From: Coffea arabica
Lineage: Eukaryota; Streptophyta; Magnoliopsida; Gentianales; Rubiaceae
Direction of reading: 5' to 3'
NCBI RefSeq assembly: GCF_036785885.1
Contig: NC_092312.1
Location: 25,438,001-25,502,000, forward strand
DNA: 64,000 nucleotides
The notes beneath the pieces were generated by a model, which saw nothing but the letters and a program-made list of their open reading frames with translations, had not been told where the DNA came from and did not search any database. Made by a program: the position numbers and the translations under genes. Shown here piece after piece: positions 17,790 through 44,217 of the stretch. Numbering within the stretch: position 1 is the first letter of the stretch; each line of letters begins with the position of its first letter.

Positions 17790-17838
17790 TATCCAAGATG
17801 GTTGGTTAAAGATTTTTTCTACAAGGGGTTAGATTATT

Positions 17839-18943
17839 GGGAAAATCGTCCAAAACGTCCCTCATATTTTGTAAAATGACTTTTTTCGTCCCTCATTTTT
17901 AAAAGTGTGATTTTATGTCCCTTACATATTCACATCGGTCAAATTTAGTCCCTAACTAGGTTTCCGATCATTTTTTGGCCGGAATCTATCACGTGCAAGG
18001 CACGTGATCATTTTTGAAGGGTAAATTTGTCAAATTATATTTTACATAATCTAATCTATAGTCCTCCACATTTTACAAAACAAATTTTTTCGTCCTTCAC
18101 ATTTTATAAAATGATTTTTTCATTCCTCACATTTCATAAAATGAATTTCTCCATCCCTCACATTTCAAAAAATGAATATTTCCATCCCTAACTAATTATG
18201 TATGTGAGGGAAACCCTAAAAAAAAATGTGTGTGAATATATTTTGTTTAAACACATGTATATGTCTATTTGATTTTGTTTAATAACACGAATAGCATAAA
18301 TATATATATGTGTCTATTTGATTTCACTTAACAATACGAATACCATATATTATACGTGATCATTTGATTTAATCTGGTATTAGCTAGTAAATAATCTTGC
18401 ATTCATTGTCAAGTTGGCCAACAAAACTATTTTCGGTCAAAATACAATAAAAATATGCAAATTAAGGTTCTATTGGTAAATATTAATCATAATCATACAA
18501 AAAGAGAAGATAACCCACAAGTTGGGCCCAATTACATACATGTGTTTATGCTATTATTATTAAGCAAAATCAAATAGACATATACATGTGTTTAAAAAAA
18601 TGTATTCACACACATAATTAGTGAGAAATGAAAATTTCATTTTTTGAAATGTGAGGGATGGAGAAATTCATTTTGTGAAATGTGAGGGACGAAAAAATTT
18701 ATTTTATAAAATGTGGAGGACTATAGATCAGATTATGTAAAATATAATTTGACAAATTTATCTTTCAAAAATAATTACCTGCCTTGTACACGATGGATTC
18801 CGGCAAAAAAATAATCGGAAACCTAGTTAAGAACTAAATTTGTCCGATATGAATATGTAAGGGATATAAAATTACACTTTTAAAAGTGAGGGACGAAAAA
18901 AGTTATTTTACAAAATGTGAGGGATGTTTTGAACGATTTTCCC
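17839..18943. mobile_element. Mutator-type foldback element, copy A only
   Basis: The ends GGGAAAATCGTCCAAAACGT and GGGAAAATCGTTCAAAACAT (inverse) begin arms of about 390-430 bp that pair with only modest divergence around a short loop near 18270-18555. The target duplication is 9 bp, TAGATTATT (17830-17838) and TAAATTATT (18944-18952). Copy B has the unoccupied site, TAGATTACT followed by TGTAAAGACG, at about 35161. No coding capacity. Confidence 0.9.
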
Positions 18944-19420
18944 TAAATTATTTGTAAAGACGTATTTTTCTGCCATTTCATATTAAAACTACTATGTGAT
19001 GGTCACCCACCTCTAAGTGAGTAATTGCCCACACCAATCTTTCTTGGTCTTGGCTTACGCGTAAGCAACTAAATTATAGACACTGGGGCCATCTATCACT
19101 CAAGATCTGGTCCTGGCCGGTGACAGATGCCAGCTCCTCAGCAGTTAAAACTTTTTCCAACTGTGCGAATCTAAAGTCCAAATCATACAATCTCACCGGC
19201 CATTTCCGCTGTACATCATGTTGGCAAACTAAAGCGAAGGATCCTATATTGCATCCAAAGTAAAACCAACCCAAAGCTTATTTTTCCATTATTTTTTCCG
19301 GCTTCTCAAGTGGGCTTCTTGGATTATGCAATTAAAGAAAATTGAATTGTTGGCATAGCTAAGCAACTCCTCAGTTTTGACAAAAAAAAAAAAAAAAAAA
19401 AGAAACAACTCCTGAGTTGC

Positions 19421-19428
19421 TATATAAA
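19421..19428 (+). promoter_or_regulatory. TATA box of the small membrane protein gene
   Basis: TATATAAA lies 133 bp upstream of the ATG at 19561. This implies a transcription start near 19450, so the open frame that begins further upstream cannot be the true start. Confidence 0.65.
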
Positions 19429-19560
19429 CAGTGTTCAAAGCTCGACAGATCTTCACTCTTCACATCCCAACTGTCACACACACTTCACCTAGCTCAGTCA
19501 GCAAATAATCTCCAAACCCTTTTATCCTTAAGCTTTGCTAAGACTAAATTGGCTGGAAAA

Positions 19561-19929
19561 ATGGCTGATAACTATTCTTCTTCATCTTATTCTCAGCCCA
19601 CTTTGCCACTACACCTTTGTTTCTTCCTTCTGATATTGTTCACCTTTGTTAGTGTCACATGGTACATCAACTATGAGAATATCTTCGAACCCTTGTTTGA
19701 TCAGGTTAAGTTGATCCTCGTGGTTTCTCCTTTACTACTTCTTCTAGCGATGCACCTACTTTCTTCGTTTGACTGGTCTTGGATTTATTTACCAATTCCT
19801 GATCAAGACTCACTTCACAGGGCTGGTGGAACTCCATGGGGTGTTGGTCTGCTTCTTGTGATTCTTCTCTTCATGGTTTCTTACCAATCTGGCTTGAGAG
19901 AGCGGTGGTTCCCTCTTCTAAGCAGATGA
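19561..19929 (+). CDS. Small plant membrane protein with three predicted spans
   Basis: Intronless, 122 residues, starting MADNYSSSSYSQPTLPLHLC. Predicted membrane spans are at about 18-37, 49-69 and 92-108. A conserved-looking stretch, HRAGGTPWGVGLLLVILLF, precedes the C-terminal RERWFPLLSR. I recognise the type as a plant-specific uncharacterised membrane protein family but cannot give a function. The start is set by the TATA box at 19421 and by hydrophobic spacing: the frame is open further upstream, but that part would lie upstream of or at the promoter. Copy B lacks this gene. Its sequence jumps from the equivalent of about 19306 directly to about 20597, so only one functional copy exists here. 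Confidence 0.8.
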   Translation: MADNYSSSSYSQPTLPLHLCFFLLILFTFVSVTWYINYENIFEPLFDQVKLILVVSPLLLLLAMHLLSSFDWSWIYLPIPDQDSLHRAGGTPWGVGLLLVILLFMVSYQSGLRERWFPLLSR

Positions 19930-20596
19930 TGAAGATGGCTTCTCCTGGATTGTGGTGATCATGATTTTAAGTGGGAATATCTGCAACATGGAGAAAACTG
20001 GTGAAAAATCTTGTGGTGTTTAGTCACAACTATGTATATTTTGAGTTTTAGGCAAGGGTGATAATTGAGAATTGAGTTTGTCAATCTCTTTCTCTCTTTG
20101 GCTGAGTTTCTATGTACTTCTTTTGACCTCTAGTATATAGCAGTAATAGGGGAATGGTTAATGAATGGCCACTTCTTTTGTGTTCTGTAATTAATCAACT
20201 TCAGTGGCGAAAACAATGAAGAATTTTGCTCCTATAGTTAGGCCAAGGGGGCTGGGCATTGTGTAATTATATTGACTGTGCCTTTTGTTTTGTATCTCCT
20301 GTGGCATGCTTTTCCACTTCTTGTTGTATACGTTTTCTGATTCAATATTCCAGGGCCTCTTAATTTGTAGCCAGAGAATTTGTGAACTGAAACGACAACC
20401 TTCATAAGAGGAAAGTCAAAGAAGGGCAACAAGATTCTTTCATCTTTGACCTACCTTATAATAGGAAAAAAAAATTTTAAAAAAAATTTGTGGGGTATTT
20501 TGGCATTTTTTAAAGAAATAAAATGGGAAATGACAAAGATGTCCACAAGTCACAACAGCTAGATTACTACAATAGAGTCGAGTGGTTAAAGGCTTT
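19930..20596. other. 3' flank of the membrane protein gene, absent from copy B
   Basis: The 3' UTR probably extends to about 20180. The remainder is non-coding. This stretch belongs to the 1.29 kb that is present in copy A and missing in copy B. Confidence 0.5.
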
Positions 20597-20959
20597 TCCT
20601 CTTGGAATGGAAGTTAATGTCTAATTATTTACACATCCACACATGCACTTCACCTATGTCGGTCACAACAAATCTTCTATGTCGCTTAACAACGAAAAAA
20701 GAAAAAATATATATACATATATATATATGATAAAAAGCAAACTACAACAAATCAAAAAACAATATATGAAAAAAAAGTAAAATAATAAAAGAAATTTCTA
20801 CTACAAGAACATTACAGAAAGTGAGACAAAAGTTATGAAATTGGAGTTGGAGTTCGGCAAATCTCTTAAACTTCTACTAAAGGAGGGAGAGCTATAGCTT
20901 CTATCTCTCCTTTTTATTTTCTTCAATGATTGAAAATAGATCTCTTGGTGGGAGATCCT

Positions 20960-21892
20960 TTACGAGGGGTCCTGATTGATAAACGTAACAATTCGTTTCA
21001 TCAAAACCCTGGCACGCTCAGAAGTGGGGTTAGGCAGATGAAAGCAATGTCCCTCCTCTTCAGTCTCCATCATTTCCAATTCTCCATCCCATCTACTTTT
21101 CTTCAATGCGCTGTAGTAAAGCAAACTTCTCTCTCTTATGAAATCCTTCTCCGCTGTTAAAACCAGGACCCTTTTGCAAACAAGCCTCGACAACAGATCA
21201 GGATGCGCCATAGGATGCAACCGGGGATCATCACAGCTGATGCTGCTATCTGGGGCTATGCTGGAGAAAATCTTATCAGGCTTACCATCACCAAAAAAGG
21301 GATGCACCAAAATCATCCCCGCGATCTTTACTTCATCCCCTGGTCCAATTTTTTCACTGGCCCTGACCATTACATCATGTGCAATATTAGCTCCAGCACT
21401 GTCACCTGCCAAAAAGATTCTAGCAAAATCGGCATGGTTATTGATCCACGCTTCAGGACCCTGTGCAGAACTAGCATGTGCAAGAACCCATTCGAATGCT
21501 ATCCAAGAATCATCATAGCATGCGGGGATAGGATGCTCCGGGGCTAGTCTGTACTCGATGGAAACAGCAATCGCCTTGGCTTCAGCTGCTAGGGAGTTAA
21601 GGTAGGGATGGTATAGAGGAGAAAATGCTGATTCAATCACAAAAGCACCTCCGTGGATGTAGATTATGATGGGAAGCTTTTCATCAGGAGTGGTGGTTCT
21701 GGGAAGGTAAAGGCGGACTGAAACGTTATTCTCTGGTGGAATAAGGATATCTTTGGATTTGACGCCTGTTTGGGGATCCTCTGAAGGCGGGGTGTAGGGG
21801 AACTCTGCAAATTTCTCGATCCGGCCATCCTTGTATACACGAAAGTAGGGATAGGAGTCGTGAAGCACCTCGGTTGATGGGGATGAGTCCAT
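20960..21892 (-). CDS. Plant carboxylesterase (alpha/beta hydrolase-3, CXE type), copy A
   Basis: Intronless. The open frame begins at 21931 with MPPSPFLLPSIPT, but I prefer the second Met at 21892 (MDSSPSTEVLHDSYPYFRVY) because family members usually start just before this point; that gives 310 residues. Counting from the upstream Met, the HGG oxyanion motif is at 93-95, the nucleophile Ser178 in GDSAG, Asp263 in AEKDF and His295 in EEGHCFHL, so the full triad is present. The family (CXE, including 2-hydroxyisoflavanone dehydratase-like and gibberellin-receptor relatives) hydrolyses small carboxyl esters. The canonical catalytic Ser and HGG argue for an enzyme rather than a receptor. The substrate is unknown. 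Copy B encodes a protein with 10 differences in 323 residues, eight of them before residue 107. Confidence 0.92.
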   Translation of the reverse strand: MDSSPSTEVLHDSYPYFRVYKDGRIEKFAEFPYTPPSEDPQTGVKSKDILIPPENNVSVRLYLPRTTTPDEKLPIIIYIHGGAFVIESAFSPLYHPYLNSLAAEAKAIAVSIEYRLAPEHPIPACYDDSWIAFEWVLAHASSAQGPEAWINNHADFARIFLAGDSAGANIAHDVMVRASEKIGPGDEVKIAGMILVHPFFGDGKPDKIFSSIAPDSSISCDDPRLHPMAHPDLLSRLVCKRVLVLTAEKDFIRERSLLYYSALKKSRWDGELEMMETEEEGHCFHLPNPTSERARVLMKRIVTFINQDPS

Positions 21893-22036
21893 TGTTGGAA
21901 TTGATGGAAGGAGAAACGGAGACGGAGGCAAGTATTTGGACTTGTGATTTACGCTTATAGGATGTTATCTAACTACTAGATAAGGACACCGGTGGTTTCC
22001 AAGACCATTTCCGTCGTTCTCGTTCCCCGTGCACAC

Positions 22037-22042
22037 CACGTG
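22037..22042. promoter_or_regulatory. G-box (CACGTG) upstream of carboxylesterase A
   Basis: The palindrome CACGTG lies about 145 bp upstream of the preferred ATG and is kept in copy B (39228-39233). bZIP or bHLH factors bind this motif in plants. Regulation is inferred from the motif alone. Confidence 0.4.
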
Positions 22043-22114
22043 ACTCAATTTATTTTTTAACCACCGTTTGATTGGGAGGTTTTGTACCCCCCTCCCCCCA
22101 ACAATGGGAATAAG

Positions 22115-23155
22115 CAATGTTTTAAAAATCGGATCGTTAATTGAACCGGTAAAGTGAAAGGGTCGAGATTTAACCGGTCGGATCGATTCAATCTCGATTT
22201 AATAAATTTTTTAAAAAATAATTTATATAAATATATATATGCATAAAATAAGACATGTAATGGACTAATTTAATATTTTATATGATGAAAGTTTACTATT
22301 TTTTAATAACTTGGATTTTTAAAAATAATTTTTTAAATTATAAGTTAAAACAAATAAATTTCATCTCAATTTCAATTATATCTAAATCCAACCCAAAAAT
22401 ATCACAAAATTTTGAAATTATTCAAAATTCACGTCTATGAGAATTTAGACATTGTGAACTTAAATTTTAATTTACGTTTTGGGATTTAGAGATTGCAATT
22501 TAAAAAAGGAAGTTTGGAATTCAAACGAAGTCAAGAGAATCGAAAATAGAAATGTAAACTTGATAAGAAACAAAAAAAATGAGATAAAAGTGAGTGGTTG
22601 TGGCATTAAATAATTTGGGTTAAAGAAAAATAATTCTTTTTTAACTTTTTTCAATTTAATGGACAAAAATAAAATTAAAAGATGAAAGAAAACATCAATA
22701 AATTAAAATAAAGAGATTTGATTAAAAAGGGAGTGATAAAAGAAAAGAGGATAGAGAGAGAGAGTTGAAGATTAAAAAGAAATAGTCATGAGAAAATGAG
22801 ATTTTGTAAGAAAAATGGAAAAAAGAAATATGAATGTTTGTTTTATATAAATAAGTTATCAAAAAAAACTAAAAAGATGTGATGGTGCAGCAATTAATAC
22901 ATTGGTCTTCTATTACAAAGGTCTTGAGATCGAATCTTGATAGTTGCATTTTGCAAAACTTAAAAAAAAAAAAGGGGGAAAGTTAAAAACCGGAAAATCG
23001 CCGATTCAATCTGGCTCGACGGTTTTCACGGTTCAACCGGATTTTGACCGATTTTCTGCCAAAGTCAACAATCGCATAAAATCGGACCGGTGTCATGGCC
23101 GGTTCGCGATTCAACCGATCAAACCGGCCAATCCGGTCCAAATTTCAAAACATTG
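22115..23155. mobile_element. hAT-type element, copy A only, with internal tRNA-like module
   Basis: The ends are CAATGTTTT and AAAACATTG. The 8-bp flanks GGAATAAG (22107-22114) and GAAATAAG (23156-23163) are the target duplication, and copy B has the single unoccupied GGAATAAG at 39289-39296. Both ends are rich in ACCGGT and CGGTTYRACCGG words, so they can pair. The 1.04 kb interior is AT-rich with no transposase. A relative in opposite orientation sits in copy B at 35232-35972. Confidence 0.85.
22876..22975 (+). repeat. tRNA-like (SINE-like) module inside the hAT element
   Basis: A-box-like TGATGGTGCAGCAATTAATA and B-box-like GGTCTTGAGATCGAATC lie about 30 bp apart, followed by TTGCATTTTGCAA and an A run. 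This layout is that of a tRNA-derived SINE. The same module is present, inverted, in the copy B element (about 35405-35500), so it belongs to the element family and is not a private insertion. Confidence 0.5.
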
Positions 23156-24284
23156 GAAATAAGAGGGTAATGAACTCCCATTGATAGTGTTTGGTAGACC
23201 ACTGTGAGGAGCGCTTGGTTCTTGCTTTCGAATTAGAAAGGGAAATGGAATAATGGATAGAGGGCTCCCTAACGAGAGTTTTGGTCAATTTCTTTCAATT
23301 TGATCGGGAATCATGAATGGCCAAATTTTGAGGCATGATTCTAATATTTTAATTTTTTTTGCATTGGACTAAGCGCGCAGTATTGGAATTATTGTAATTT
23401 CAAGTACCAAAACTTCTAAATTAAGTGGTTTTCCAATACCAAAAAACCCATTGCCCACCGATTTGTGCATCCGATCCTTAAGGAGTTTCCTTACTGGGTC
23501 TCACTTTAAAAATTTAACATTTGTAACAACATTGACATCCGCAAACAAATCTTTTTTTTCATTATAAGAGTAGTGACTTTTTAGAATTCCTAGTCAAGTA
23601 AATCACAGTTATTTGAGAGTGATTTTTTAGAATTCTAAGTCAATTACAAATTTTCAAATTAAAAAAAGGGTGTACAAAGTGACAGAAAAAATTGGATGCT
23701 GAGAGGATTAAGAATAATTTTGATTATGAGTTTATAGATTTTTATTTGATGTGATTTCTCGTTATTGATGCACTGACTGGTTTTGCAATATTCAAGAGGA
23801 GCGAATAGCCAAATAGATTTCAATGTAGGATTGGATTAATGAAATCATATGAGTTGTTACATATATCAAAATTTTAGAATGAGGGCCGGTAAAAGAGCAC
23901 CTTAATTAAGGGGGCTGAGGATCGATGCACAAATTTGGGCACTTTCGCTTCTCATTACCCGCATTCTAGAAGAAGGTCCAAAATAAAGCAAAATTGAAAC
24001 GGGTAAAAAAATACGAGAGAGAAAAAGAACGCATATCTTTCTTTCTCCTCCCTCCTATGTATCGCTGCATTTTCTTCCCCACTCCTCCGCTCTTGCCCCT
24101 CTACTTCATCCCTCACTTCTCCCACCCTCCATACTGCCACTGCTCCATCTCCCACTTGCTCTTCTACTTCACCTTTTGCAGCTTCCCTTCCATCCCTCTC
24201 ACAACACTAATTAAGTTTTTTTTAATATAGTTTTGCATAACAAATTTGTAATTGGAATCAATGAGTTGGTTACCTACGAATCAT

Positions 24285-24893
24285 GCTGCAATTGATCAAC
24301 GATATACGTACAAGCAGGTAGCGGTGGTGAAGGCTATGGGAGGTGATGGTAGTAATGATAAAGAGTTTAAGAGAGAGAAAAAAAAAAGGAAAAAAGTGAA
24401 AAAGAAAAAGTGGCAGAGGGAGATGGATTTGCAGTGGCCAAATTCATGTGTTCTTCCTCATCTTGAGCCTTGCCATCCTCAGTTTCTACTGCAACTTACC
24501 TATCGCAGTGGTGATGCAGTGGATATGAGTAACAAGATCCATCCCAGCTGCGCCATTAGCTGATCATATTGGTTGCCTTGGTTGAACCTTTGGACACTTC
24601 CTGTATTAGCAATTTATATGAACTTTTGCAATTCTCCTTTATATCTATAGCAATTTATGCCGTGTACCAAGGTGGCCAATGGGCAATGGGGCGGGTTCAC
24701 ATTGGCTTTAATCGGGGAAAACGGATAGACCGGGGAGGAAGCAATGGTACCACTACCCATGGACACTGGTCACCCTTGTGGTACATCGTACTTCACACCT
24801 ATATATAATAAGCTGTTAATCATGTATTGCAGGTATACAAAACAGTTCCAACTTGGATTAACTGACTAGATTTTGTGCTCTTCGAGTAATCAT
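24285..24893. other. 609 bp present only in copy A
   Basis: The segment lies between two AATCAT repeats (24279-24284 and 24888-24893). Copy B has one AATCAT and no intervening DNA. There are no terminal inverted repeats, so a deletion in B between short direct repeats is the simpler reading. Within it, an open frame at about 24252-24563 is Lys-rich and low in complexity and is not called as a gene. Confidence 0.5.
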
Positions 24894-24977
24894 TTGCAGG
24901 ACGTCCTGCACATTCAACTACATCATATAACATAAGATCTACCTTAGAGAAAACATATATATGACATACAAAAAGAA

Positions 24978-25208
24978 ACCACTGGGCCAATGGCGCAGTG
25001 GCCAAGTCCCTCTTTAGGCTGTAGGTGAACCTCACCTGCAGATTCTTCATCTGCAGCGAAAAAAATCTAAGAGTTGTGCCATAACACTTTATTGGTTTAG
25101 TTGGGTCTGTATACCCACTAGCCCCTACCACAGCCTCTTTAAGCTCCCCCTCCCCTCTAGATTAGGATAAAATAGATTATACAATTGTGTCGTTGCTGAA
25201 AAAAAAAA
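24978..25208 (+). mobile_element. tRNA-derived SINE, copy A only
   Basis: The head carries an A box, TGGCGCAGTGG. The tail has CTCCCCCTCCCCTCTAGATT, then a TTATACAATTGT stretch and a poly(A) run. A 14-bp direct repeat, ACATACAAAAAGAA, flanks it exactly (24964-24977 and 25209-25222). Copy B has the unoccupied site at about 40536-40549. The length is 231 bp. The 3' tail matches the SINE at about 36713-36948. Confidence 0.9.
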
Positions 25209-25860
25209 ACATACAAAAAGAATATAGTCAAGACTTATTATTAGGTGAGCATAAGTCATATTTTGTTGTGATTCATAAACATCACAGGTACATTCTCTTG
25301 TTCAAGATTAAACAGTAAGTGATGTTGAATGTTGATTAGGATTATTAGCTTAGATAGGAGGGACATTAATTAGTCAAGATACTATGAGGTTTCTGATAAG
25401 GTTTGCAGTCTCCTCTTAAAAAGAAAAAAAAAAAAAAAGAATCTACCAATGCAGGTAGTAAATCAAGTACACATAAGTATCTTCTAGTTATGATGCACAC
25501 TACAAAAACAAAGTTGGCGCAGTGCAATCTGAATGAACAGTTCACGAATGGCCATGTTGAGGCTCATTATGGTACAAGGCTTGTAATTAATTACCCTAAA
25601 CTTATATTACTTCGGCCATCTCTGTCTATTAGTAGCCTATTCTGCGAACCACGACCGAATGCGTGTCCATTTTCACTTAGAAATAAACAGATGTGTGGGC
25701 TACGGGCTCAACATTTTCTCGTTGGGGGGCCATTTAGTCAAAACTAGGACTATGGGGCCTTGGGCTTTCCGGCAAAGGGCCATTGTATGTCATGGAGGAA
25801 TGCTAAAAGAGAGTATATGTTGTACCTTGACTCAACTGAAAATGATCCAAAGTATTGGAA

Positions 25861-26130
25861 GTCGTTAACTAACTCCCTCTAGAGCAGTTGGCCACCACAT
25901 TAATTATGGATGGGAGGTCAAGGGTTCACCCAACCCTTAACCTCCCATCAATGTGCCTCAATATGAGATTTGTTCTAAATTCATACAGATGTATAGTACA
26001 TCCGTAGGGTCTAATGGTGATTTAGTCCCCATCAGGTTCCCTCAATCAAGTTGAGCCATTCCAAAGAGTAGGTTCCCCCCTTTAGGAGTACGAGTAGGCT
26101 AGGGTTAGATGTGCCTTTAAGTAAAAAAAA
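25861..26130 (+). mobile_element. Second SINE family member, copy A only
   Basis: A-box-like CTAGAGCAGTTGG and B-box-like GGTCAAGGGTTCACCC are followed by about 190 bp of body and a poly(A) run. A 12-bp direct repeat AAAGTATTGGAA flanks it (25849-25860 and 26131-26142), and copy B is unoccupied at about 41106-41122. The length is 270 bp. The body does not resemble the SINE at 24978, so it is a different family. Confidence 0.85.
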
Positions 26131-27489
26131 AAAGTATTGGAACTTGTTTGCTGCAATTTTTTTTTAATTCTTCTCGAGTACCTATTCATTTATTTTAAGA
26201 CATGAACTGGCAAATGCCTAAGAAAACTGTGAAAAAAAAGGTAGTAATACAACTATTTCATTCTAATAATAGAATTTTGCATCATTAAAAGGTGACTTAA
26301 AGTAGAATGAGTTCAGCACTTTAATTTAGACTTTGCTTGTGAGCTCAAGAAGGGAAAACCACACAAAAAAAGGTACACCATTTTATGTTTATGGTTCATT
26401 GCTAACAGTAAAAAACAGAATGATCATGAATATTTGACAATGCTATAAGCAAGAAACAACAAAGAATGCATGTTACTTCATGATTGCACAGTCTTGGAAA
26501 AAGAATCACATTTAGAATTACAAAGGGTTTTCGACATGAACAATGAAAAAAATGTCTTTTAATGAAGGTATTCTTGGGAGTGAGAATAATGTTTTCCATT
26601 GGCTAAAGTGTTAGGCCCAAAAAAGCAAAAGGCAAAACCTGATAAGTTAATAGTGAAGAAGATATGGATGGGACAAGTGGTAAATTAACCAGATGATTCA
26701 TGGATGATTTGTAAAGGGATTGCAAGTAGAAGAAAAAAATATGCAGAAGACTACTCAGCTGTAATTAAGATTACCTTCACCAAAATAATATTGTATTATA
26801 AACCCCCTTAATGGTTTAAATATCCTTTTACATTTCTCATCATCAAATAATCAAACCAACAATAGACATAAATTACCATGGCAGAAGAATAAGATATGGG
26901 ATACGACCTTTATGTCATTATTGGTGACATAGATCAGGCACGATAATGGAAGAACATGAGGCATTTGAAATTTCGACATTCCACGTGAGTCTCCTTTTGT
27001 CTTTATTCTTATTCTCAAGAAATTTAGATTTCCCATTGGGCTGACAACCACTAATTTTTTCACCTGAACCAACCATGCTTGTAGCTTTTGTTACATGTCA
27101 ACAGAAAGCACTGTTCTTTTCTGTTGTGGGTATTAGAATTTCAACCATTTATAATGTAAAAGTGAAAGAGCTAAAAAGGAAAAAGAATATTTAATTTTTG
27201 GGCAATGCTTGCTGGAATGTTCCTTTCCAAACCATGAAAAAAAAATTCGATTGCAAAAGATATGTCTTTTTAGGTTAAGGAAATAAATACAACTTTGATA
27301 AAAGGATTATTAAAGTTGAAAAAAATAAAAAGCTAAAGATGGCTCTTTCTCCAACTACAAGAAAAAGAGTGAAAAGAGGAAAGAAAATAAACGAATGTTG
27401 TAACTTTATTGGGATGCGCATAACATTATTGAGGCTGCAGAGAATTTCTTGGGACAATTAGTGCATTGGTGAGTATGATTGATGACAGA

Positions 27490-33280: not shown

Positions 33281-33396
33281 ATCCACGTGTCTCGAACATT
33301 GCATGTCTCTCCTCACCTTCTTCAGTTCTTTGCGCAAATATTCATTAATTTAGTGTTTGTCGTTAAGCAAATTCCCTCAACTGCTGTGATTATCCT

Positions 33397-35110
33397 TCAT
33401 AAATGTATCATAGTTAGTAATTGTTGGTAACGTAAATGTATAATACATATTGTATGTATCATTTACAAATGTTAAGTGTTTTAATAAATTTATTTTCTAG
33501 GTCACAGGTATAAAAGTTAAGGTTGTACTAATGTAGCATAATCTTTGAAAATTATAGTAAATTTACCCATATATTAAGTTTTGTGAGTTTCAAATATATT
33601 TTGTATCATTTACAATATGGATTTATATGCACATTTTTATCAAAATTATTTTTAATTGGCAAATAGTATGTAAATTATTATAAAATGTCATTTTATAATA
33701 ATCATAATTTTTATAGGTTGATGGTATATAAACTGCTAAAATTGTCAATTTATAAATGAGTAAATCTTACTACTTTATGGCATATTTTCCTTAATTAAAT
33801 GTACGTTGGTTGTTAATTTGAAAATTGCATCCCTGTCACTATTTCATTATTACTACCACAAGTTTTTCTAATCAAAGTAAAACAAAATCAAATATCTATT
33901 CCTTTTAATATGCAGTATTTATGTTTAGTAAAAAATTAATAAACCATGATTACATTTCATAATTTCTAATGAAATTAGTAACATTTTCTAAATAAATTAG
34001 AATAATTTGTAATATATGTTATTTTTTTTACCAATATAATCAAAAGAAATTTGTACTCTTAAAAAGCAAATGGGAAGAAAGGACGATGGTATAAATATAA
34101 ATGTGAGCAACTATATGCATATCACACCATGAGTTTAGGTTTGATTTGTTCAAAACAACGGTAATTTATTTGTTATTAGATATAAAATGCATATTATTTT
34201 TCTGCATATGAAAAATACAATTTCATATATACTAACCATTAACAGAATATGTAGTTTGAACACGATCAATTGAACTCATATTTCATTTGTTTAGTTATCA
34301 TTTATTTAGTTACTTAGGTTGAATATTTACATTTGAATAGAGTATTGATATCAGAGCTTCAATTATTCCCAATGACACTAATTTTGTGCTGATAAAAGTT
34401 GGTCTAGACAATTAAGTGTCAATGACAACAATTGCTAGAATATATTTTTTTAAATTTTTTTTGAAAATTAACAAAAAAATTACACTTTTTTTGTGAAAAT
34501 ATCAAATTGTTAATTCAATTCAAATTAATTTTATAATAAAAAATGTTATTCCTCAAAGTAGTTGCTTAATTTGTATCTATGCCCGTACTAGTGTCGAATG
34601 GATAACTAAAATAGGAAATTGCAACAAAAAATAATGTTACAATAAAGGTGTAAATAGGTAGGACTTTTGCTAATTTTAACCCAAAATGATAAAAAAAAAA
34701 AGATAGGCTTTTTTGTTGTTTTGAATTCAAAAGTGTTGTGGTTGTGATAGAATTCTTTGTTAAAATTTGAAACAGTTCAGAATTCCAGAGATAAGTGACA
34801 AGGTGATTTTTTATTTAAATATGGAAATTTTTTACTTTTAGTATTAGTAAGTTTAATTTAAACAAAAGTAAATTTTGTCAAATAATAAGTAAGTTAAATT
34901 ACTCAAAGTGTAAATTTCTATTTCTGACTAAAACTTATCTTTCAGGCATATACTTACTAGTTTTAATTAAAAACTTACTAAAATTAATATTAATTAGTTT
35001 AATATAATATTTAAAAAGTTGCTAAAAAACTTGATCTGTCACTAAAGGTAATAGAAACCTACAATAGTAGGTTTCCCTAATATCGTTATCATAACTATAG
35101 GCACTGTAGC
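33397..35110. other. AT-rich spacer between the two duplicated copies
   Basis: About 1.7 kb of very AT-rich DNA with no coding potential. It is bracketed by an 8-bp direct repeat ATTATCCT (33389-33396 and 35111-35118), which could mark an insertion, but I see no convincing terminal inverted repeats. Near the right end, CACTAAAGGTAATAG and the palindrome AAACCTACAATAGTAGGTTT vaguely recall CACTA subterminal repeats. The identity is open. Confidence 0.4.
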
Positions 35111-35231
35111 ATTATCCTATCTATCCAAGATGGTAGGTTAAAGATTTTTCCTAAAAGGGGTTAGATTACTTGTAAAGACGTAACTTTCTGCCATTTCATA
35201 CTAAAACTACTATGTGATGCTCATCCACCTC

Positions 35232-35972
35232 CAATGTTTTGAAAATCGGACCAGACCGGCCAGTTCGACCGGTTGAACCGCGAACCGCCATGGCACCGGT
35301 CCGGTTCAATGCTACAGTTGATTTTGTCAGAAAATCGGTCAAGAATCGGTCGAACCGTAAAAATCGCGGTCGAACCGCTATTGAACCGATTTTCAACCTT
35401 CCCTTTTTTTTTTTTGTTGCAAAATGCAACTATTAAGATTCAAACTCAAGATCTTTGTAATAGATGACCAATGTATTAACCGTTGCACCATCACATCCTA
35501 TTAGTTTTTTTTGATAACTTATTTATATAAAGTAAACATTCATATTTCTTTTTTCCATTTTTCTTACAAAATCTCATCCTCTCATGGTTCTTTCTTTTTA
35601 ATTTTCAACACTCTCTCTCTCTCTCTATCCTCTTTTTTTCGTCACTCCCTTTTTAATCAAACCTCTTTATTTTTAATTTATTGATGTTTTCTTTCATCTT
35701 TTAATTTTGTTTTTGTCCATTAAATTGAAAAAAGTTCAAAAAGAATTATTTTTTTAACCCAAATTATTTAATGCTACAACCACGCACTTTTATCTCATTT
35801 TTTGTTTCTTATCAAGTTTACATTTCTATTTTCGATTTTCTTGACTTCCTTCGAACTCCAAACTTCCTTTTTTAAATTGCAATCTCTAAAATGTAAATTA
35901 AAATTTAATTTCACAATATCTAAATTCTCATAGACGTGAATTTTGTATAATTTCAAAATATTGTGATATTTG
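35232..35972. mobile_element. hAT-type derivative, copy B only, one abnormal end
   Basis: The left end CAATGTTTTGAAAATCGG matches the inverse of the right end of the element at 22115-23155, and the body matches that element in inverse orientation, including the tRNA-like module (about 35405-35500). The homology stops at about 35971, roughly 280 bp short of the other terminus. Even so, TCCACCTC (35224-35231) and CCCACCTC (35973-35980) form an 8-bp target duplication, and copy A shows the single site at 19006-19013. Eight bases or so inside the abnormal end, CAAAATATTG differs by one base from the true end CAAAACATTG. Confidence 0.75.
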
Positions 35973-36463
35973 CCCACCTCTAAGTGAGTAATTGCCCACA
36001 CCAATCCTTCTTGGTCTTGGCTTACGCGTAAGCAGCAACTAAATTATAGACAATGGGGTCAATCATAGACAATGGCATGTAGCCGTGTCTAGAAGTAAGT
36101 AGGTAGTACTTATTTGAATTGACATACTGCTACTAAATTGCATTGATGTCACAAAATGGTAATCGTGCACGCTAATAATTTGTTTCTTTCACTCCTAACC
36201 TGCTAGATATGATGAACCAATGGTTAGCATCCTATTAAAATTCGCTTTTATGGACCATTACCATGTCCTCATATTTATTCTTCTTCCTTCTTTTTTGGAA
36301 ATTGAATGGAACTGTGACATACTTTTGTACGTGTTGTGAATTTGTGGTCTTGGTAATTTTGATGGGTTATGAATGAAATTCAAAACATTTCCAAAGTTTC
36401 TTTTTAAAAAAAATAAATAAAATAAAATTTTAATTATTTGGCTTCAAATGAATTCAATTGATT

Positions 36464-36948
<485 letters not shown>

Positions 36949-37448
36949 ATTGCCCACATAATGTCTATAATTGCCCACACCAATCTTTCTTGGTCTCACT
37001 CAAGATCTGGTCCTGGCCGGTGACAGATGCCAGCTCCTCAGCAGTTAAAACTTTTTCCAAGTGTACGAATCTAAAGTCCAAATCATACAAAATCTCAGCG
37101 GCCATTGCTGCCGTATAGCATCATCATGTTGTCAAACTAAAGCGAAGGGTCCTATATTGCATCCAAAGTAAAACCAACCCAAAATTATTTTTTCCGGCTT
37201 CTCTTGGAATGGAAGTTAATGTCTAATTATTTACACATCCACACATGCACTTCACCTATTTCGGTCACCACGAATCTTCGACGTCACTTATTGTACCGTT
37301 CACTTTCTCATAGTGTATTACATTGCTATCTATCCTTCACGAACTTCCTCAAAAAGTAAAAAGGGGAAAAAAAAACATAAGATAAAAAGCAAACTACAGC
37401 AAATCAAAAAACAATATATGAAAAAAATAAAATAATAAAAGAAATTTC

Positions 37449-37986
37449 TGTTAGGGTGGTTATCTAAATCTAACCACCGGTGAAAACCATCACCTTTAAA
37501 CCCAAGATCTGTATGGCGATTATTAAGAAATAAATTAACTGTAAAATAGCGGAAGCGTACCTGAATCCATATTGATAAACTTGATACTTGAATCCCTTAG
37601 ATGTTTAGGGTGACCTTCCAGGTCAACAGGTATTCACTGATCCTTTGAGAGAGGCCTTTAGTTTATCTCTGATATCTTTCCTGACGATGGGATATCAGAG
37701 AAGAGATATTTTGTGGTATTAGGAAATACGACAACTAAAACGATACCTGTGACCTGGGGACCATAACCCTATTTATAGGTAACATTCCTGTTACCTTTGG
37801 AGCCCTATTTCAGCCCATCATTGAAATAGGAGCTCATAAGTTTCTACACATAAAAGGGCCCACATCCTATTAGATACATTAAATCCAAACTATATTTGAT
37901 TACTTTAATTGAGTTTAACCTTAATTGACAGTTTGCAATACATAATTATTTACATATAAATCCAATGTTGGATTAAGGATACAACA
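37449..37986 (-). mobile_element. Solo LTR of an LTR retrotransposon, copy B only
   Basis: The sequence begins TGTTAGGGTGG and ends GGATACAACA, with a 5-bp target duplication ATTTC (37444-37448 and 37987-37991). Copy A has the single site at 20794-20798. A CTATAAATAGGG promoter motif reads on the minus strand near 37770, which sets the orientation. The length is 538 bp. No internal region remains, so this is a fossil left by LTR-LTR recombination. Superfamily (Copia or Gypsy) is not settled. It is younger than the duplication. Confidence 0.85.
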
Positions 37987-38150
37987 ATTTCTATACAAGA
38001 ACATTCAGAAAGTGAGACAGAAGTTATGAAATTGGAGTTGGAGTTCGGCAAATCTCTTAAACTTCTACTAAAGGAGGGAGAGCTATAGCTTCTATCTCTC
38101 CTTTTTATTTTCTTCAATGATTGAAAATAGATCTCTTGGTGGGAGGTCCT

Positions 38151-39083
38151 TTACGAGGGGTCCTGATTGACAAACGTAACAATTCGTTTCATCAAAACCC
38201 TGGCACGCTCAGAAGTGGGGTTAGGCAGATGAAAGCAATGTCCCTCCTCTTCAGTCTCCATCATTTCCAATTCTCCATCCCATCTACTTTTCTTCAATGC
38301 GCTGTAGTAAAGCAAACTTCTCTCTCTTATGAAATCCTTCTCCGCTGTTAAAACCAGGACCCTTTTGCAAACAAGCCTCGACAACAGATCAGGATGCGCC
38401 ATAGGATGCAACCGGGGATCATCACAGCTGATGCTGCTATCTGGGGCTATGCTGGAGAAAATCTTATCAGGCTTACCATCACCAAAAAAGGGATGCACCA
38501 AAATCATCCCCGCGATCTTTACTTCATCCCCTGGTCCAATTTTTTCACTGGCCCTGACCATTACATCATGTGCAATATTAGCTCCAGCACTGTCACCTGC
38601 CAAAAAGATTCTAGCAAAATCGGCATGGTTATTGATCCACGCTTCAGGACCCTGTGCAGAGCTAGCATGTGCAAGAACCCATTCGAATGCTATCCAAGAA
38701 TCATCATAGCATGCGGGGAAAGGATGCTCCGGGGCTAGTCTGTACTCGATGGAAACAGCAATCGCCTTGGCTTCAGCTGCTAGGGAGTTAAGGTAGGGAT
38801 GGTATACACGAGAAAATGCTGATTCAATCACAAAAGCACCTCCGTGGATGTAGATTATGATGGGAAGCTTTTCATCAGGAGTGGTGGTTCTGGGAAGGTA
38901 AAGGCGGACTGAAACGTTATTCTCAGGTGGAATAAGGATATCTTTGGATTTGACGCCTGTTTGGGGATCCTCTGACGGCGGGGTGTAGGGGAACTCTGTG
39001 AATCTCTCTATCCGGCCATCCTTGTATACACGAAAGTAGGGATGGGCGTCGTGATGCACCTCGGTTGATGGTGTTGAGTCCAT
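38151..39083 (-). CDS. Plant carboxylesterase (alpha/beta hydrolase-3, CXE type), copy B
   Basis: Paralogue of the gene at 20960-21892, intronless, with the preferred start at 39083 (MDSTPSTEVHHDAHPYFRVY) and an upstream in-frame Met at 39122. HGG, GDSAG, AEKDF and EEGHCFHL are all intact, so it should be an active esterase. Ten residues differ from copy A in upstream-Met numbering: S17T, L23H, S26A, Y27H, K40R, A42T, P105R, L106V, I135F and I318V. Two of these (105-106) lie just after the oxyanion loop, close to where substrate is bound in this family, so the two enzymes might differ in substrate preference. By eye, about 11 of 16 coding base changes alter the protein, near the neutral expectation. 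Confidence 0.92.
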   Translation of the reverse strand: MDSTPSTEVHHDAHPYFRVYKDGRIERFTEFPYTPPSEDPQTGVKSKDILIPPENNVSVRLYLPRTTTPDEKLPIIIYIHGGAFVIESAFSRVYHPYLNSLAAEAKAIAVSIEYRLAPEHPFPACYDDSWIAFEWVLAHASSAQGPEAWINNHADFARIFLAGDSAGANIAHDVMVRASEKIGPGDEVKIAGMILVHPFFGDGKPDKIFSSIAPDSSISCDDPRLHPMAHPDLLSRLVCKRVLVLTAEKDFIRERSLLYYSALKKSRWDGELEMMETEEEGHCFHLPNPTSERARVLMKRIVTFVNQDPS

Positions 39084-39227
39084 TGTTGGAATTGATGGAA
39101 GGAGAAACGGAGACGGAGGCAAGTATTTGGACTTGTGATTTACGCTTATAGGATGTTATCTAACTGCTAGATAAGGACACCGGTGGTTTCCAAGACCCTT
39201 TCCGCCGTTCTCGTTCCCCGTGCACAC

Positions 39228-39233
39228 CACGTG
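39228..39233. promoter_or_regulatory. G-box (CACGTG) upstream of carboxylesterase B
   Basis: Same motif and position as in copy A, about 145 bp upstream of the preferred ATG. Confidence 0.4.
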
Positions 39234-39296
39234 ACTCAATTTATTTTTTAACCACCGTTTGATTGGGAGGTTTTGTACCCCCACAATGGGAATAAG

Positions 39297-42200
39297 AGGG
39301 TAATGAACTCCCATTGATAGTATCTGGTAGACCACTGTGAGGGGCGCTCGGTTCTAGCTTGGGAAATAGAAAGGGAAATGGAATAATGGATAAAGGGCTC
39401 ACTAACTAGAGTTTTGGTCAATTTCTCCCAATTTGGCCGGGAATCATGAACGGCCAAATTTTGAGGCATGATTCTAATATTTTAATTTTTATTGCATTGG
39501 ACCAAGCGCGTAGTATTGAAATTATTGTAATTTCAAGTACCAAAACCTCTGAACTAAGTGATTTTCCAATACCCAAAACCCGTTGCCCACCGATTTGTGC
39601 ATCCGATCCTTAGCCTCCTTAAGGAGTTTTCTCACTGGGTCTCACTTTAAAAATTTAACATTTGTAACAACGTTAACATCCGACAAACAAATTTTTTTTT
39701 TCATTATAAGAGTAGTGACTTTTTAGAATTCCAAGTCAAGTAAATCACAGTTATTTGAGAGTGGTTTTTTAGAATTCTAAGTCTATTACAAATTTTCAAA
39801 TTAAAAAAAAAAGGTGTAAAGAGTGACAGAAAAAATTGGATGCTGAGAGAATTAAGAATAATTATGATTGTGGATTTAGGGTTTATAGATTTTTATTTGA
39901 TGTGATTTCTCGTTATTGATGCATTGACTGATTTTGTAATATTTAAGAGGAGGGAATAGCTAAATAGATTTTGATGTAGGATTGGATTAACGAGAAATCA
40001 CGTGAATTGTTACAAATATCAAATTTTTAGAGTGAGAGCCGGTAAAAGAGCTCCCTAATTAAGGGGGCTGAGGGTCGGATGCACAAATTTGGGCACTTTC
40101 ACTTCTTGTTACCCACATTCTAGAAAAAGATCTAAATCAAAGCAAACTTGAAACGGAAAAAAAAAAAAAAAAAAATACGAGAGAGAAAAAGAACGTATAT
40201 CTTTCTTCCTCCTCCCTCCTATGTATCGCTGCATTTTCTTCCCCCATCCTCCGCCCTTGCCCCTCTACTTCATCCCTCACTTCTCCCACTCTCCATACTC
40301 CCACTGCTCCATCTCCAGCACTTGCTCTTCTACTTCATCTTTTGCAGCTTCCCTTCCATCCCTCTCACAACGCTAATTAAGTTTTTTTTTTAATAGAGTT
40401 TTGCATAACAAATTTGTAATTGGAATGAATGAGTTGGTTATCTACGAATCATTTGCAGGACGCCACAGAGTTGGATCCTGCAGATTTAACTACATCATAT
40501 AACATAAGATCTACCTTAGAGAAAACATATATAAGACATGCAAAAAGAATATATGTCAAGATTTATTATTGGGTAAGCATAAGTCATATTTTGTTGTGAT
40601 TCATAAACATCACAGGTACATTCTCTCGTTCAAGATTAAATAGTAAGTGATGTTCAATGTTAATTAATTAGGATTATTAGCTTAGATAGCATGAGGTTTG
40701 TGATAAGGTTTACAGTCTCCTCTTAAAACGGAAAAAAATCTACCAATGCAGGTAGTAAATCAAGTATACATAAGTATCTTCTAGATATTATGCACACTAC
40801 AAGAAGAAAGCTGGCGCAGTGCAATCTCAATGAACAGGTCACGAATGGCCATGTTGGGGTTGATTATGGTACAAGGCTTGTAATTAATTACCCTAAACTT
40901 ATATTACTTCGGCCATCTCTCTCTATTGGCAGCCCATCCTGCGAATGTGTGGGCTATGGGCTCAACATTTTCTCGTTGGAGGGCCATTTAGTCAAAACCA
41001 GGACTAGGTTTGGGGCCTAGGGCTTTCCCACAAGAGGGCCTCTGTATTTCGTGGAGGAATGCTAGAAGAGAGTATATGTTCTACTTTGACTAAACTGAAA
41101 ATGATCCAAATGTATTTATTGAACTCGCTTCCTGCAATTTTTTGTTTGTTTGTTTGTTTGTAATTCTTCTCGAGTACCTATTCATTTATTTTAAGACATG
41201 AACTGGCAAATGCCTAAGAAAACTGTGGAAAAAAGGGTAGTAACACAACTATTTCATTCTAATAATAGAATTTTGCATCATTAAAAGGTGACTTAAAGTA
41301 GAATGAGTTCAGCACTTTAATTTAGACTTTGCTCGTGGGTGAAAATATTACAAGCCTTGTAACTCAGTCTCCTTTTGGAATTTCTCACTTATATTCCTGC
41401 TCCGGTACTGCCCAACTCATTCCTCCCCTGTAACTCATTCTCCTTAATGACCAAAATATAAAATTTTGGATTTTGCTTATTTTTCAGATTAGATAAGTGA
41501 AAACGCTGGTAGTATGATAAAGCTTTTGGCCTCTAACAGCCCAAAAACAAGAAACAAGAGACTAAAACTGTAGATTTCAGCTGATTCAAAACCAAAAAGG
41601 GAAAAGAAAAAAAAAAAAAAAGCAGATGAGCACACGCATACATAAATTGTCATTGAAAGAGAATCCAAAGCTTCATTTTGTAGGCCTTTGTTAATTGCTT
41701 TTGTCAAATGCTTTTTCTTTTCCTCTTTCATATAAAGCTATAATTCAGACAGAATTGATGCTTCTTTCTTTTGCCCACCCCTTACCCCCCATCTTTTGGC
41801 ATCCACAACTAACTTGGTAAAGAAGACTCCTAAAGCCTTTGACTAGTAGCTCATAGAAAGATGGTAGCAACATGAGCTCAAGAAGGGAAAACCACAAAAA
41901 AAAAGGTACACCATTTTATGTTTATGATTCATTGCTAACAGTAAAAAGCAGAATGATCATGAATATTTGTCAATGCTATAAGCAAGAAACAACAAAGAAT
42001 GCATGTTACGTCATGATTGCACAGTCTTGGAAAAAGAATCACATTTAGAATTACAAAGGGTTTTCGACTTGAACAATGAAAAAAAGGTCTTTTAATGAAG
42101 GTATTCTTGGGAGTGAGAATAATGTTTTCCATTGGCCAAGTGTTAGGCCCAAAAAAGCAAAAGGCAAAACCTGATAAGTTAAAGGTGAAGAAGATATGGA

Positions 42201-44217
42201 TAGGACAAGTGGAAAATTAACCAGATAATTCATGGATGATTTGTAAAGGGATTGCAAGTAGAAGAAAAAAAAATGTAGAAGACTACTTAGCATGTAATTA
42301 AGATTAGCTTCACCAAAATAATAATCATATTAAGAATACCTAGCTAGATATTGCATTATAAACCCTCTTAATGGGTTTAATATCCTTTTACATTCTCATC
42401 ATCAAATAATCAAACCAACAATAGACATAAATTCCCATGGCAGAAGAATAAGATATGGGATGCAACCTTTATGTCGTTATTGGTGACATAGATCAGGCAC
42501 GATAATGGAATAACATGAGGCATTTGAATTTTTGACATTCCCCGTGAGTCTCCTTTTGTCTTTATTCTTATTCTCAAGAAATTTTGATTTCCCATTGGGC
42601 TGACAACCTCTAATTTTTTCACCTAAACCAACTATGCTTGTAGCTTTTGTTACATGTCAACAGAAAGCACTGTTCTTTTCTGTTGTGGGTATTAGAATTT
42701 CAACCATTTATAATGTAAAAGTGAAAGAGCTAAAAAGGAAAAAGAATATTTAATTTTGGGCAATTCTTGCTGAAATGTTCCTTTCCAAACCATGTAAAAA
42801 AAATTTCGATTGCAAAAGATATGTCTTTTTAGGTTAAGGAAATAAATACAACTTTGCTAAAAGGAATATTGGTAAAGATGAAAAAAATAAAAAGCTAAAG
42901 ATGGCTCTTTCTCCAACTGCAAGAAAAAGAGTGAAAAGAGGAAAGAAAATAAACGAATGTTGTAACTTTATTGGGAGGCGCATAACATTATCTAAAGCTT
43001 TGGCTGCAGGGAATTTCTTGGGACAATTAGTGCCTCATGTATCTTCCAAAATAATGGGCCATCCAAACAAATCACATGTATTTGTTTTTCTTCCACTATT
43101 ACTTCCTCCTACTTAATTAACTTTTACGCAACAAAATAGTTGCTTCCTACTTCATAGTTGATTAAACCTCAAAATCTTCGACAGCAATAAATGAAGAGAT
43201 GAATACTTATGATAAGTACTACAGCCACTATTTTAACAACAAAAAGTGATGCATAAGGGTCGTCAGAAATATGATTAGGAGTGAGGCAGTAGTAAGTAGA
43301 TTGTTCATTGTCTCATGATGACCAATTGATGAGTACTTTAGAAAATGAAGAATACCTGGAGACCCATGATTCTGACTGCACAGTTGTCTTGCCTGTAAAG
43401 ACTACCCGATGGATAAAGATAAGAATAAGAAACAAAAGCATTTATCGAAAGCAAAAGGTGCCCAGCTGCTTATGTCCCATTGCGGGAGCGGTTATCTCCT
43501 CACACACACACACAGACACAGACACATAGACATTGTTAAACCAATCACTGCTGCAGTGTAGGATTAGGTTTGATAGAACAAGATTAAGGGTTGGTTTGAT
43601 AACATAAAAGATTACGATAAATGAATCTAAATAAAACACTTACTGGTGAGGTCATGGTTGAGCATTGAAGCTACATCATTTCATTTATCAAATGTTTAGA
43701 GGGCAAGTACTAAAATCAAATTGATTTCATGGTTGAAATGAAGCTACACCATAGCTCTTCGCAGACTGACTCAAATTTGTTTCATTGAGGGATGAAAGAG
43801 TTGAATAGATTTGAATCTTAAACCACTTTTTCTACATCCAAAATTTCATGCACGACAATATTGAACCCTTTTCTAGTTGTACGTACTCACAGAATAAATG
43901 GTTGACAAGCAAGTTGTAAAAATACTCAAACTACTTTCTCAAAAATCCAAGATTTGTGCAGCAATTGATGTGGCCTTTGCAAAATCAAGAATAACGCACA
44001 TATACAACATCTCTTTGAATTTGTCCACGGATCTGACAAAAGGTAAAGCATTATCTAGACAATTTAGAGTGCACGTATATTTCCAGACCCAAGAGAACAA
44101 GTGAGTAATTATCCACATGTCTCGAACATTGCATGTCTCTCCTCACCTTCTTCAGTTCTTTGAGCAAATCTTCATTAATTTAGTGCTTGTCGGGAAGCAA
44201 ATCCCCTCAGCTGCTGT
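39297..44217. other. Non-coding part of copy B
   Basis: No gene is supported in this part. It contains 41337-41872 (535 bp) and 43026-44110 (about 1.1 kb), both absent from copy A, and a CA/GACA microsatellite at about 43499-43530. Short open frames shared with copy A on the minus strand (for example 42410-42622 and 26851-27072) show about as many replacement as silent changes, so they look non-coding. Confidence 0.45.

What the first reader, a model, noticed from the sequence alone, without database searches (positions are those of the whole stretch)
17790..44217. Tandem segmental duplication that dates its own mobile-element insertions
Two same-orientation copies (A 17790-33387, B 35119-44217) can be aligned block by block. 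About seven insertions are present in one copy and empty in the other: in A the foldback 17839, the hAT 22115, SINEs 24978 and 25861, and the LTR fossil 27490; in B the hAT derivative 35232 and the solo LTR 37449. Most empty sites retain a single target sequence. This gives a relative clock for several element families at one locus.
Basis: seen in the sequence. Interest (0 to 1): 0.75.

Follow-up and report, generated by a model that had tools for sequence, protein, structure and literature searches.

The report
Coffee esterase tandem duplicates, patchily homogenised
This is a real, old tandem duplication of a plant esterase gene in what is almost certainly Arabica coffee; most of the mobile elements noted landed in one copy after the duplication, but one does not fit and the two copies have since exchanged sequence, so the site orders events only roughly.

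Summary
The tandem pair is real: A 17786-33387 and B 35118-44217 align block by block. The genome fits the 1,198-Mb Coffea arabica HiFi assembly; C3 is probably chr2c, and C4 its homoeolog, which carries four copies of the unit, three with an intact carboxylesterase. Using C4 as an outgroup revises the finding. (1) Six of seven named insertions have a target duplication and empty sites elsewhere. The LTR fossil has none in six copies probed; B and C4-4 hold other sequence there. (2) Several unlisted A/B differences are not insertions; A 19309-20598 is a deletion shared by B and C4-2. (3) The edges 17786 and 33387 are not the original breakpoints: C4 joins 45616-equivalent to 11270-equivalent, and a truncated repeat sits at the A/B border. 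(4) Around the gene A and B group by subgenome, while the left flank groups by ortholog (11:3 against 0:10, P=0.00015), so copies were partly homogenised after the species split. The clock gives an upper bound for six elements and a tighter one for four. An ordinary kind of locus, well resolved.

The parts
17786..33387 (+). Copy A of the tandem unit as now delimited
   Evidence: block alignment; chain
35118..44217 (+). Copy B of the tandem unit as now delimited
20960..21892 (-). Carboxylesterase (CXE) gene A, intact 310-aa ORF, Pfam PF07859
38151..39083 (-). CXE gene B, intact 310-aa ORF
17840..18943 (.). Foldback / MULE-like element in A, ~324-bp inverted arms, 9-bp target duplication (one mismatch); empty in B, C4-1, C4-2; family of many copies
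22115..23155 (.). hAT-type element in A, 8-bp target duplication (one mismatch); 223 bp upstream of the CXE-A start codon; empty in B, C4-1, C4-2, C4-4
24978..25205 (+). SINE 1 in A, A-rich tail, 14-bp target duplication; empty in B, C4-3, C4-4
25862..26140 (+). SINE 2 in A, A-rich tail, 12-bp target duplication; empty in C4-3, C4-4, locally altered empty site in B
27500..33283 (.). LTR retrotransposon fossil in A (LTRs 27500-28822 and 31967-33283); no empty site in six copies, no target duplication seen
35232..35972 (.). hAT derivative in B, 8-bp target duplication (one mismatch); same family as the hAT in A (opposite orientation); empty in A, C4-1, C4-2
37449..37986 (.). Solo LTR in B, TG...CA ends, 5-bp ATTTC duplication; empty in A, C4-1, C4-2, C4-4; family occurs as pairs about 6 kb apart
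19309..20598 (+). Segment kept in A and C4-1 (right end also in C4-4), deleted in B and C4-2; holds a short membrane-protein-like ORF (19381-19929)
41338..41872 (+). Segment present in B, C4-4 and (left junction) C4-3, absent from A: most likely a deletion in A
43034..44108 (+). Segment shared by B and C4-4 that A lacks; the LTR fossil stands in its place in A
36059..36995 (+). Local rearrangement/gain shared by B and C4-2, absent from A and C4-1: marks B and C4-2 as orthologs on the left
33406..35117 (.). Left-truncated copy of a multi-copy repeat at the A/B border; secondary scar, not the original duplication breakpoint
20981..21469 (.). 489 bp with no A/B difference although the C4 copies differ: homogenised tract in the 3' half of the CXE gene

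Best explanation
The window lies on what is probably chromosome 2 of Arabica coffee, in the C. canephora-derived subgenome. An ancestral carboxylesterase (CXE) unit was tandemly duplicated before C. canephora and C. eugenioides split. The array then evolved by birth and death. In the homoeolog it has four units, three with intact CXE genes, and it retains a duplication junction that joins 45616-equivalent to 11270-equivalent. In the window the material between A and B was lost and a truncated repeat now sits there. Six mobile elements inserted into one copy or the other, each leaving its target duplication; one LTR fossil stands in place of 1,075 bp instead. In parallel, non-allelic exchange (gene conversion or unequal crossing over) homogenised patches around the CXE gene within a subgenome, while the left flank kept its orthologous relationships. 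Shown: copies, junctions, empty sites and topology switches. Inferred: order of events, the exchange mechanism, the species and the subgenome assignment.
For: Block alignment. C3/C4 collinear flanks and four units on C4. B and C4-2 share two states absent from A and C4-1, the deletion of 19309-20598 and the 36059-36995 gain, so that duplication predates the C3/C4 split; the two segments shared by B and C4-4 (41338-41872, 43034-44108) are compatible but may be ancestral. Noncoding A/B transversions 2.34% (74 of 3,160) against 0.82% (204 of 24,984) for five C3/C4 flank blocks, P=9e-13. Six insertions with target duplications and empty sites. Informative sites for A, B, C4-1, C4-2: left flank 10 ortholog, 0 subgenome, 1 other; gene 3, 11, 0; Fisher P=0.00015 on the first two classes. 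GENECONV-like run of 20 of 88 variable columns agreeing between A and B, permutation P=0.0115. CXE A/B dS 0.030 against A/C4-1 0.035. Species: 1,197.96 Mb in 131 contigs against 1,198 Mb in 132 scaffolds; a methyltransferase exon on C1 is identical to PDB 2EFJ at 120 of 121 aligned residues.
Against: The permutation P values are not corrected for ten pairs; A/C4-4 (P=0.006) and C4-1/C4-2 (P=0.029) also stand out. The C4 copies could have been homogenised instead of A and B; the sites do not say which. Right of the gene the quartet signal is mixed (1 ortholog, 20 subgenome, 14 other), so no single history holds there. Selection lowers gene divergence too. Species and subgenome names are inferred; C2 shows three methyltransferase hits near 0.7 Mb where the paper reports two copies on Chr1e, and I examined only one of the three. 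No reads were seen.
Confidence: 0.85

Rival explanations
1. Assembly error: allelic haplotypes or homoeologs wrongly placed in tandem, so that the 'copies' are alleles.
For: Closely related copies in tandem are a known failure of assemblies; I could not see reads.
Against: A and B differ by about 6% in noncoding blocks, three times the C3/C4 difference in five single-copy flank blocks; the outer flanks are not duplicated within the window; C4 independently has an array; no N in 104 kb of C3 or 160 kb of C4; the matching paper describes a di-haploid accession (start of abstract).
Confidence: 0.03
2. The high identity of the gene block reflects only purifying selection, with no exchange between the copies.
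For: Most pairs of the five gene-bearing copies are more alike in the gene than outside it; dN is below dS in all ten pairs.
Against: Selection does not regroup copies by subgenome: 11 sites join A with B against C4-1 and C4-2 in the gene where 10 sites join orthologs in the left flank. The B protein is a mosaic: its first part is C4-4-like and its later part, with an indel state shared by A and C4-1 but not C4-2 and C4-4, is A-like.
Confidence: 0.1
3. The duplications in C3 and C4 arose independently after the species split.
For: Copy number and one junction differ between C3 and C4; within the gene A and B group together.
Against: B and C4-2 share a deletion and a gain that A and C4-1 lack; left-flank sites join A with C4-1 and B with C4-2, 10 to 0; A/B divergence exceeds C3/C4 divergence.
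Confidence: 0.07
4. The LTR fossil is not one insertion but the product of recombination between two nearby elements, which removed the DNA between them.
For: No target duplication seen and no empty site in six copies; 1,075 bp of B missing in A; its two LTRs differ by K2P 0.0985, more than any of six A/B blocks; the first 801 bases of the 5' LTR match a copy on C15 (90%) slightly better than the partner LTR (88%).
Against: 35 bp at its left edge are unexplained. Transitions are inflated in the LTRs (ts/tv 4.4 against 1.6 pooled), and transversions (1.7%) do not exceed A/B (2.3%), so one insertion plus a flanking deletion fits as well.
Confidence: 0.35

Closest known systems
Tandem plant gene arrays evolving by birth and death with gene conversion
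   Same: Copy-number differences between relatives, mosaic copies, patchy homogenisation, elements inserted between and inside units.
   Different: Nothing basic; what is useful is that two homoeologous arrays in one genome give each of six elements three or four empty sites in other copies.
Class I plant carboxylesterases (CXE); nearest solved chain 2-hydroxyisoflavanone dehydratase (8ea1), then CorS, tabersonine and catharanthine synthases
   Same: Same alpha/beta hydrolase family by Pfam and by sequence search; residues 5-305 of 310 match 8ea1.
   Different: Overall similarity to the solved proteins is moderate; substrate unknown.
DXMT tandem duplication on C. arabica Chr1e (PMC10805892, passages read)
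   Same: A tandem duplication whose copy number differs between homoeologs.
   Different: A different gene and chromosome; there Chr1c is single-copy, whereas here both subgenomes have arrays.

Membership tests
Tandem segmental duplication | Two collinear same-orientation copies close together, beyond chance | tested here: met
Tandem segmental duplication | Breakpoint junction between units identified | tested here: inconclusive
   Found on C4 (53645|53656); in the window overwritten by repeat 33406-35117
hAT elements (22115, 35232) | 8-bp target duplication and short inverted ends (criteria recalled) | tested here: met
   each duplication with one mismatch; family copies
hAT elements (22115, 35232) | hAT transposase or relation to an autonomous hAT | not tested
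   No ORF of 150 aa or more in either element; no transposase search done
MULE / foldback (17840) | Long inverted arms and about 9-bp target duplication (criteria recalled) | tested here: met
MULE / foldback (17840) | Mutator transposase | not tested
   none searched
SINEs (24978, 25862) | Short element, A-rich 3' tail, long variable target duplication, dispersed copies | tested here: met
SINEs (24978, 25862) | tRNA-derived head with Pol III boxes | not tested
   no promoter or tRNA search was run on them
Solo LTR (37449) | TG...CA ends, 5-bp target duplication, same sequence found as LTR pairs elsewhere | tested here: met
LTR retrotransposon (27500-33283) | Two direct LTRs | tested here: met
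LTR retrotransposon (27500-33283) | Target duplication / empty site | tested here: not met
LTR retrotransposon (27500-33283) | gag-pol domains | tested here: inconclusive
   No relevant Pfam family in the four ORF pieces searched of the 12 ORFs listed for 27500-35117
Plant carboxylesterase (CXE) | Abhydrolase_3 domain over cut-off, full-length intact ORFs | tested here: met
   Pfam on copy A only; five of five ORFs open
Concerted evolution by gene conversion | Paralogs within one genome closer than orthologs in a bounded tract | tested here: met
Concerted evolution by gene conversion | Direction and non-reciprocal nature of the exchange | not testable with these tools
   needs outgroup species or population data

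The most novel reading that the evidence does not exclude
The CXE arrays of the two coffee progenitors were each homogenised over the coding and proximal promoter region, under pressure to keep a species-specific esterase, and the hAT insertion 223 bp upstream of gene A, inside that region and absent from the four other copies that have the site, is a recent event that freed A's promoter from homogenisation and gave it different expression.
Probability: 0.12. Interest if true: 0.5.

Novelty: new member of a known kind. Interest (0 to 1): 0.33.

Why it matters
It is a compact worked example of how far presence/absence between tandem copies can date insertions. The homoeologous array turns a two-way comparison into one with up to five informative copies per site: it upholds six of seven insertions, exposes one false case, reclassifies several differences as deletions or shared states, and shows that exchange between copies makes raw divergence an unreliable age. 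For coffee biology it identifies a CXE array with different copy number in the two subgenomes and a promoter-proximal insertion in one gene.

Tried and rejected
Rejected: all A/B length differences are insertions (one search shows several are deletions or shared states). Rejected: the finding's edges are the original duplication breakpoints. Rejected: A 19309-20598 is a retrocopy or mobile element; of eight matches in the genome three are A, C4-1 and part of C4-4, and five are only 30-37 bp. Rejected: LTR divergence as an age for the LTR fossil. The foldback arms (K2P 0.136) were not used as an age, since arms can diverge before insertion. CG/CHG context did not explain the excess of LTR transitions: 28 of 96 in the LTR pair and 32 of 108 in three A/B blocks. 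Pfam on four internal ORFs of the LTR fossil gave nothing useful. For the species test, exons from C17 and C18 and C2:10.7 Mb were paralogs, not near-identical; one C2 locus near 0.7 Mb was close to xanthosine methyltransferase, and the C1 locus gave the 120-of-121 match. Paper searches (listings) showed no paper on this cluster; I did not read beyond passages of three papers, so this is not proof that none exists. Columns with gaps were dropped from the counts (run test).
Full report
What was checked. blastn of 17.7-33.5 kb against 34.9-44.4 kb gives a collinear chain of plus-strand blocks from A 17786/B 35118 to A 33387/B 44217. Identities including gaps run from 85 to 97% outside the gene (one 29-bp block is 100%) and are 98.2% over 20793-22091/37986-39282.

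Where it is. The window is C3:25438001-25502000 of a 1,197,963,845-base genome in 131 contigs. CXE-like genes recur in neighbouring contig pairs such as C3/C4, C5/C6, C11/C12, C15/C16 and C19/C20 (128 of 204 candidates scored). A paper on Coffea arabica lists a HiFi assembly of 1,198 Mb in 132 scaffolds, with 22 pseudochromosomes for the species (PMC11018527, passages read). A methyltransferase exon on C1 is identical to PDB 2EFJ, 3,7-dimethylxanthine methyltransferase, at 120 of 121 aligned residues; that 2EFJ is the C. canephora enzyme is recalled. PMC10805892 (passages) reports a single DXMT on Chr1c and a tandem duplication giving two copies on Chr1e; here C1 has one hit near 0.8 Mb and C2 three near 0.7 Mb (120 of 215 candidates scored), of which I examined one, so the match is good but not exact. 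I infer that odd contigs are canephora-derived, that C3 is chr2c and C4 chr2e. The two species split 4-6 million years ago according to PMC11018527 (passages).

The homoeologous array. C3 and C4 are collinear on both sides. C4 carries four units, in kb after 25.8 Mb: C4-1 up to 53.6, C4-2 53.7-71.1 (broken by inserts), C4-3 91.5-98.0 (no CXE hit there) and C4-4 100.4-108.5. CXE ORFs of 310-312 aa are intact in A, B, C4-1, C4-2 and C4-4, five of five examined. On C4 the sequence runs from 45616-equivalent to 11270-equivalent across 53645|53656, with a short filler (TTGATGAAAGC) between that also occurs about 30 bases further on. I read this as a duplication junction made by end joining with a templated filler; that mechanism is an inference. 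It shows that one unit reached well beyond 17786 and 44217. In the window a repeat, 33406-35117, lies between A and B. It has 10 other places in the genome covering at least 1,640 of 1,727 bases at 92-95% (40 of 795 candidates scored), and the four of these that I fetched all extend further left than the window copy. So the present edges are scars.

Insertion by insertion (sequences; probes against six copies, where a copy can answer only if it has the flanks). Foldback A: filled in A, empty in B, C4-1, C4-2 (probe identity 91-94%). hAT A: filled in A, empty in B (89%), C4-1 and C4-2 (82% each) and C4-4 (77%); one search shows these sites directly. hAT derivative B: filled in B, empty in A, C4-1, C4-2 (93-94%). 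Solo LTR B: filled in B, empty in A, C4-1, C4-2, C4-4 (93-95%). SINE1 A: filled in A, empty in B, C4-3, C4-4 (90-94%). SINE2 A: filled in A, empty in C4-3, C4-4 (84-85%), and in B with a local change (77%). LTR fossil: filled in A, no empty site in any of the six; B and C4-4 carry another sequence there. Right-junction hits that began at base 41-46 of a probe, and a partial flank hit of the hAT probe in A itself, cover only shared target and flank sequence and were not counted.

The elements as families. Each search scored 40 candidates including the window's own copy; counts are therefore lower bounds. The other scored places ran at 94-96% for the foldback half (of 2,984 candidates; lower rows there are second arms or pieces), 86-93% for the hAT (of 1,597; four further rows are fragments), 77-90% for SINE1 (of 969), 75-85% for SINE2 (of 420), 94-96% for the solo LTR (of 784) and 86-90% for the first 801 bases of the LTR fossil's LTR (of 5,986, its own partner LTR included). 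Solo-LTR relatives occur in pairs about 6 kb apart, such as C22:47972804 and 47979177, as LTRs of full elements do. The two hATs are the same family, K2P 0.121 apart.

Differences that are not insertions. A 19309-20598 is kept in C4-1 and at its right end in C4-4, and is missing at the same point in B and C4-2: most simply a deletion before the species split. It holds an ORF with a MADN start that is open in A and C4-1 and has no Pfam match at E 0.001. B 36059-36995 is shared by B and C4-2. B 41338-41872 is shared by B, C4-4 and, at its left junction, C4-3. B 43034-44108 is shared by B and C4-4. The left of B therefore goes with C4-2 and the right of B with C4-4, so B or the C4 array has been reshuffled. 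A 24285-24887 is missing from B but largely present in C4-3 and C4-4, apart from 24642-24880, which was seen only in A.

Divergence and order. Pooled over five noncoding A/B blocks, transversions are 74 of 3,160 (2.34%) and transitions 118 (3.73%). Five C3/C4 single-copy flank blocks give 204 of 24,984 (0.82%) and 327 (1.31%); these flanks may include genes and so may understate neutral divergence. The C3/C4 comparisons of unit blocks that I take as orthologous, the gene left out, gave K2P 0.021-0.072, the highest being B/C4-2 36575-37449. The duplication is therefore older than the split, by a factor I would put at roughly two and not more exactly. The LTR pair has K2P 0.0985, above all six A/B blocks (0.016-0.082), with ts/tv 4.4 against 1.6 (P=0.0002). 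By transversions alone it is 22 of 1,312 (1.68%), below A/B but not significantly (P=0.18) and above C3/C4 (P=0.003). So LTR age taken at face value contradicts presence/absence here.

Exchange between copies. For A, B, C4-1 and C4-2, sites supporting orthologs (A with C4-1), subgenomes (A with B) and the third grouping number 10, 0, 1 in the left flank (three blocks, 478 sites), 3, 11, 0 in the gene block (1,358 sites) and 1, 20, 14 to the right (895 sites). Left against gene, first two classes: P=0.00015. With C4-4 in place of C4-2 the gene block gives 7 ortholog, 11 subgenome, 1 other, and the right block 2, 5, 4. From 20981 to 21469 A and B do not differ. In 21529-21853 the seven ortholog sites join B with C4-4 and A with C4-1. 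The CXE proteins show the same mosaic: B is C4-4-like in its first part and A-like later. The longest A/B run, 20 of 88 variable columns, has permutation P=0.0115, not corrected for ten pairs; A/C4-4 had P=0.006 and C4-1/C4-2 P=0.029, the other seven above 0.05. I conclude that copies exchanged sequence within a subgenome, without knowing the direction or which subgenome. The hAT in A lies in a region where A and B group together on both sides yet is absent from B, so it probably came after that exchange.

What the clock gives. The foldback, the hAT derivative and the solo LTR are absent from the C4 unit that I take as orthologous on that side, and the hAT of A is absent from B and from the three C4 units with the site; these four probably postdate the species split. 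The SINEs are bounded only by the duplication, because A's right half has no clear ortholog in C4. The LTR fossil is unbounded by this method.

Verdict. A genuine and well-preserved example of a common kind of locus.

Noticed in passing
window 19381-19929: Intact short membrane-protein-like ORF (from MADN) kept in A and C4-1, lost in B and C4-2 by a shared deletion; no Pfam match.
   Followed up: partly
window 24642-24880: About 239 bp found only in copy A, with no clear target duplication; nature unknown.
   Followed up: no
C4:25852153-25853645 (window 44127-45616 equivalent): A second copy of the start of the AAA-ATPase gene region ends at the C4 duplication junction.
   Followed up: partly
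C4:25898812-25900352: Fragments of the window's 48743-49695 region, and the first 91 bases of the EF-hand probe, lie between C4-3 and C4-4: traces of a further duplication.
   Followed up: no
C9:1488394 and C10:1660927: Sequence 83% identical to part of the region upstream of the CXE gene (40000-40400) on another contig pair.
   Followed up: no
C2:680461, 689450, 700928; C1:806662: Three methyltransferase hits near 0.7 Mb on C2 against one on C1; a paper reports two DXMT copies on Chr1e.
   Followed up: partly
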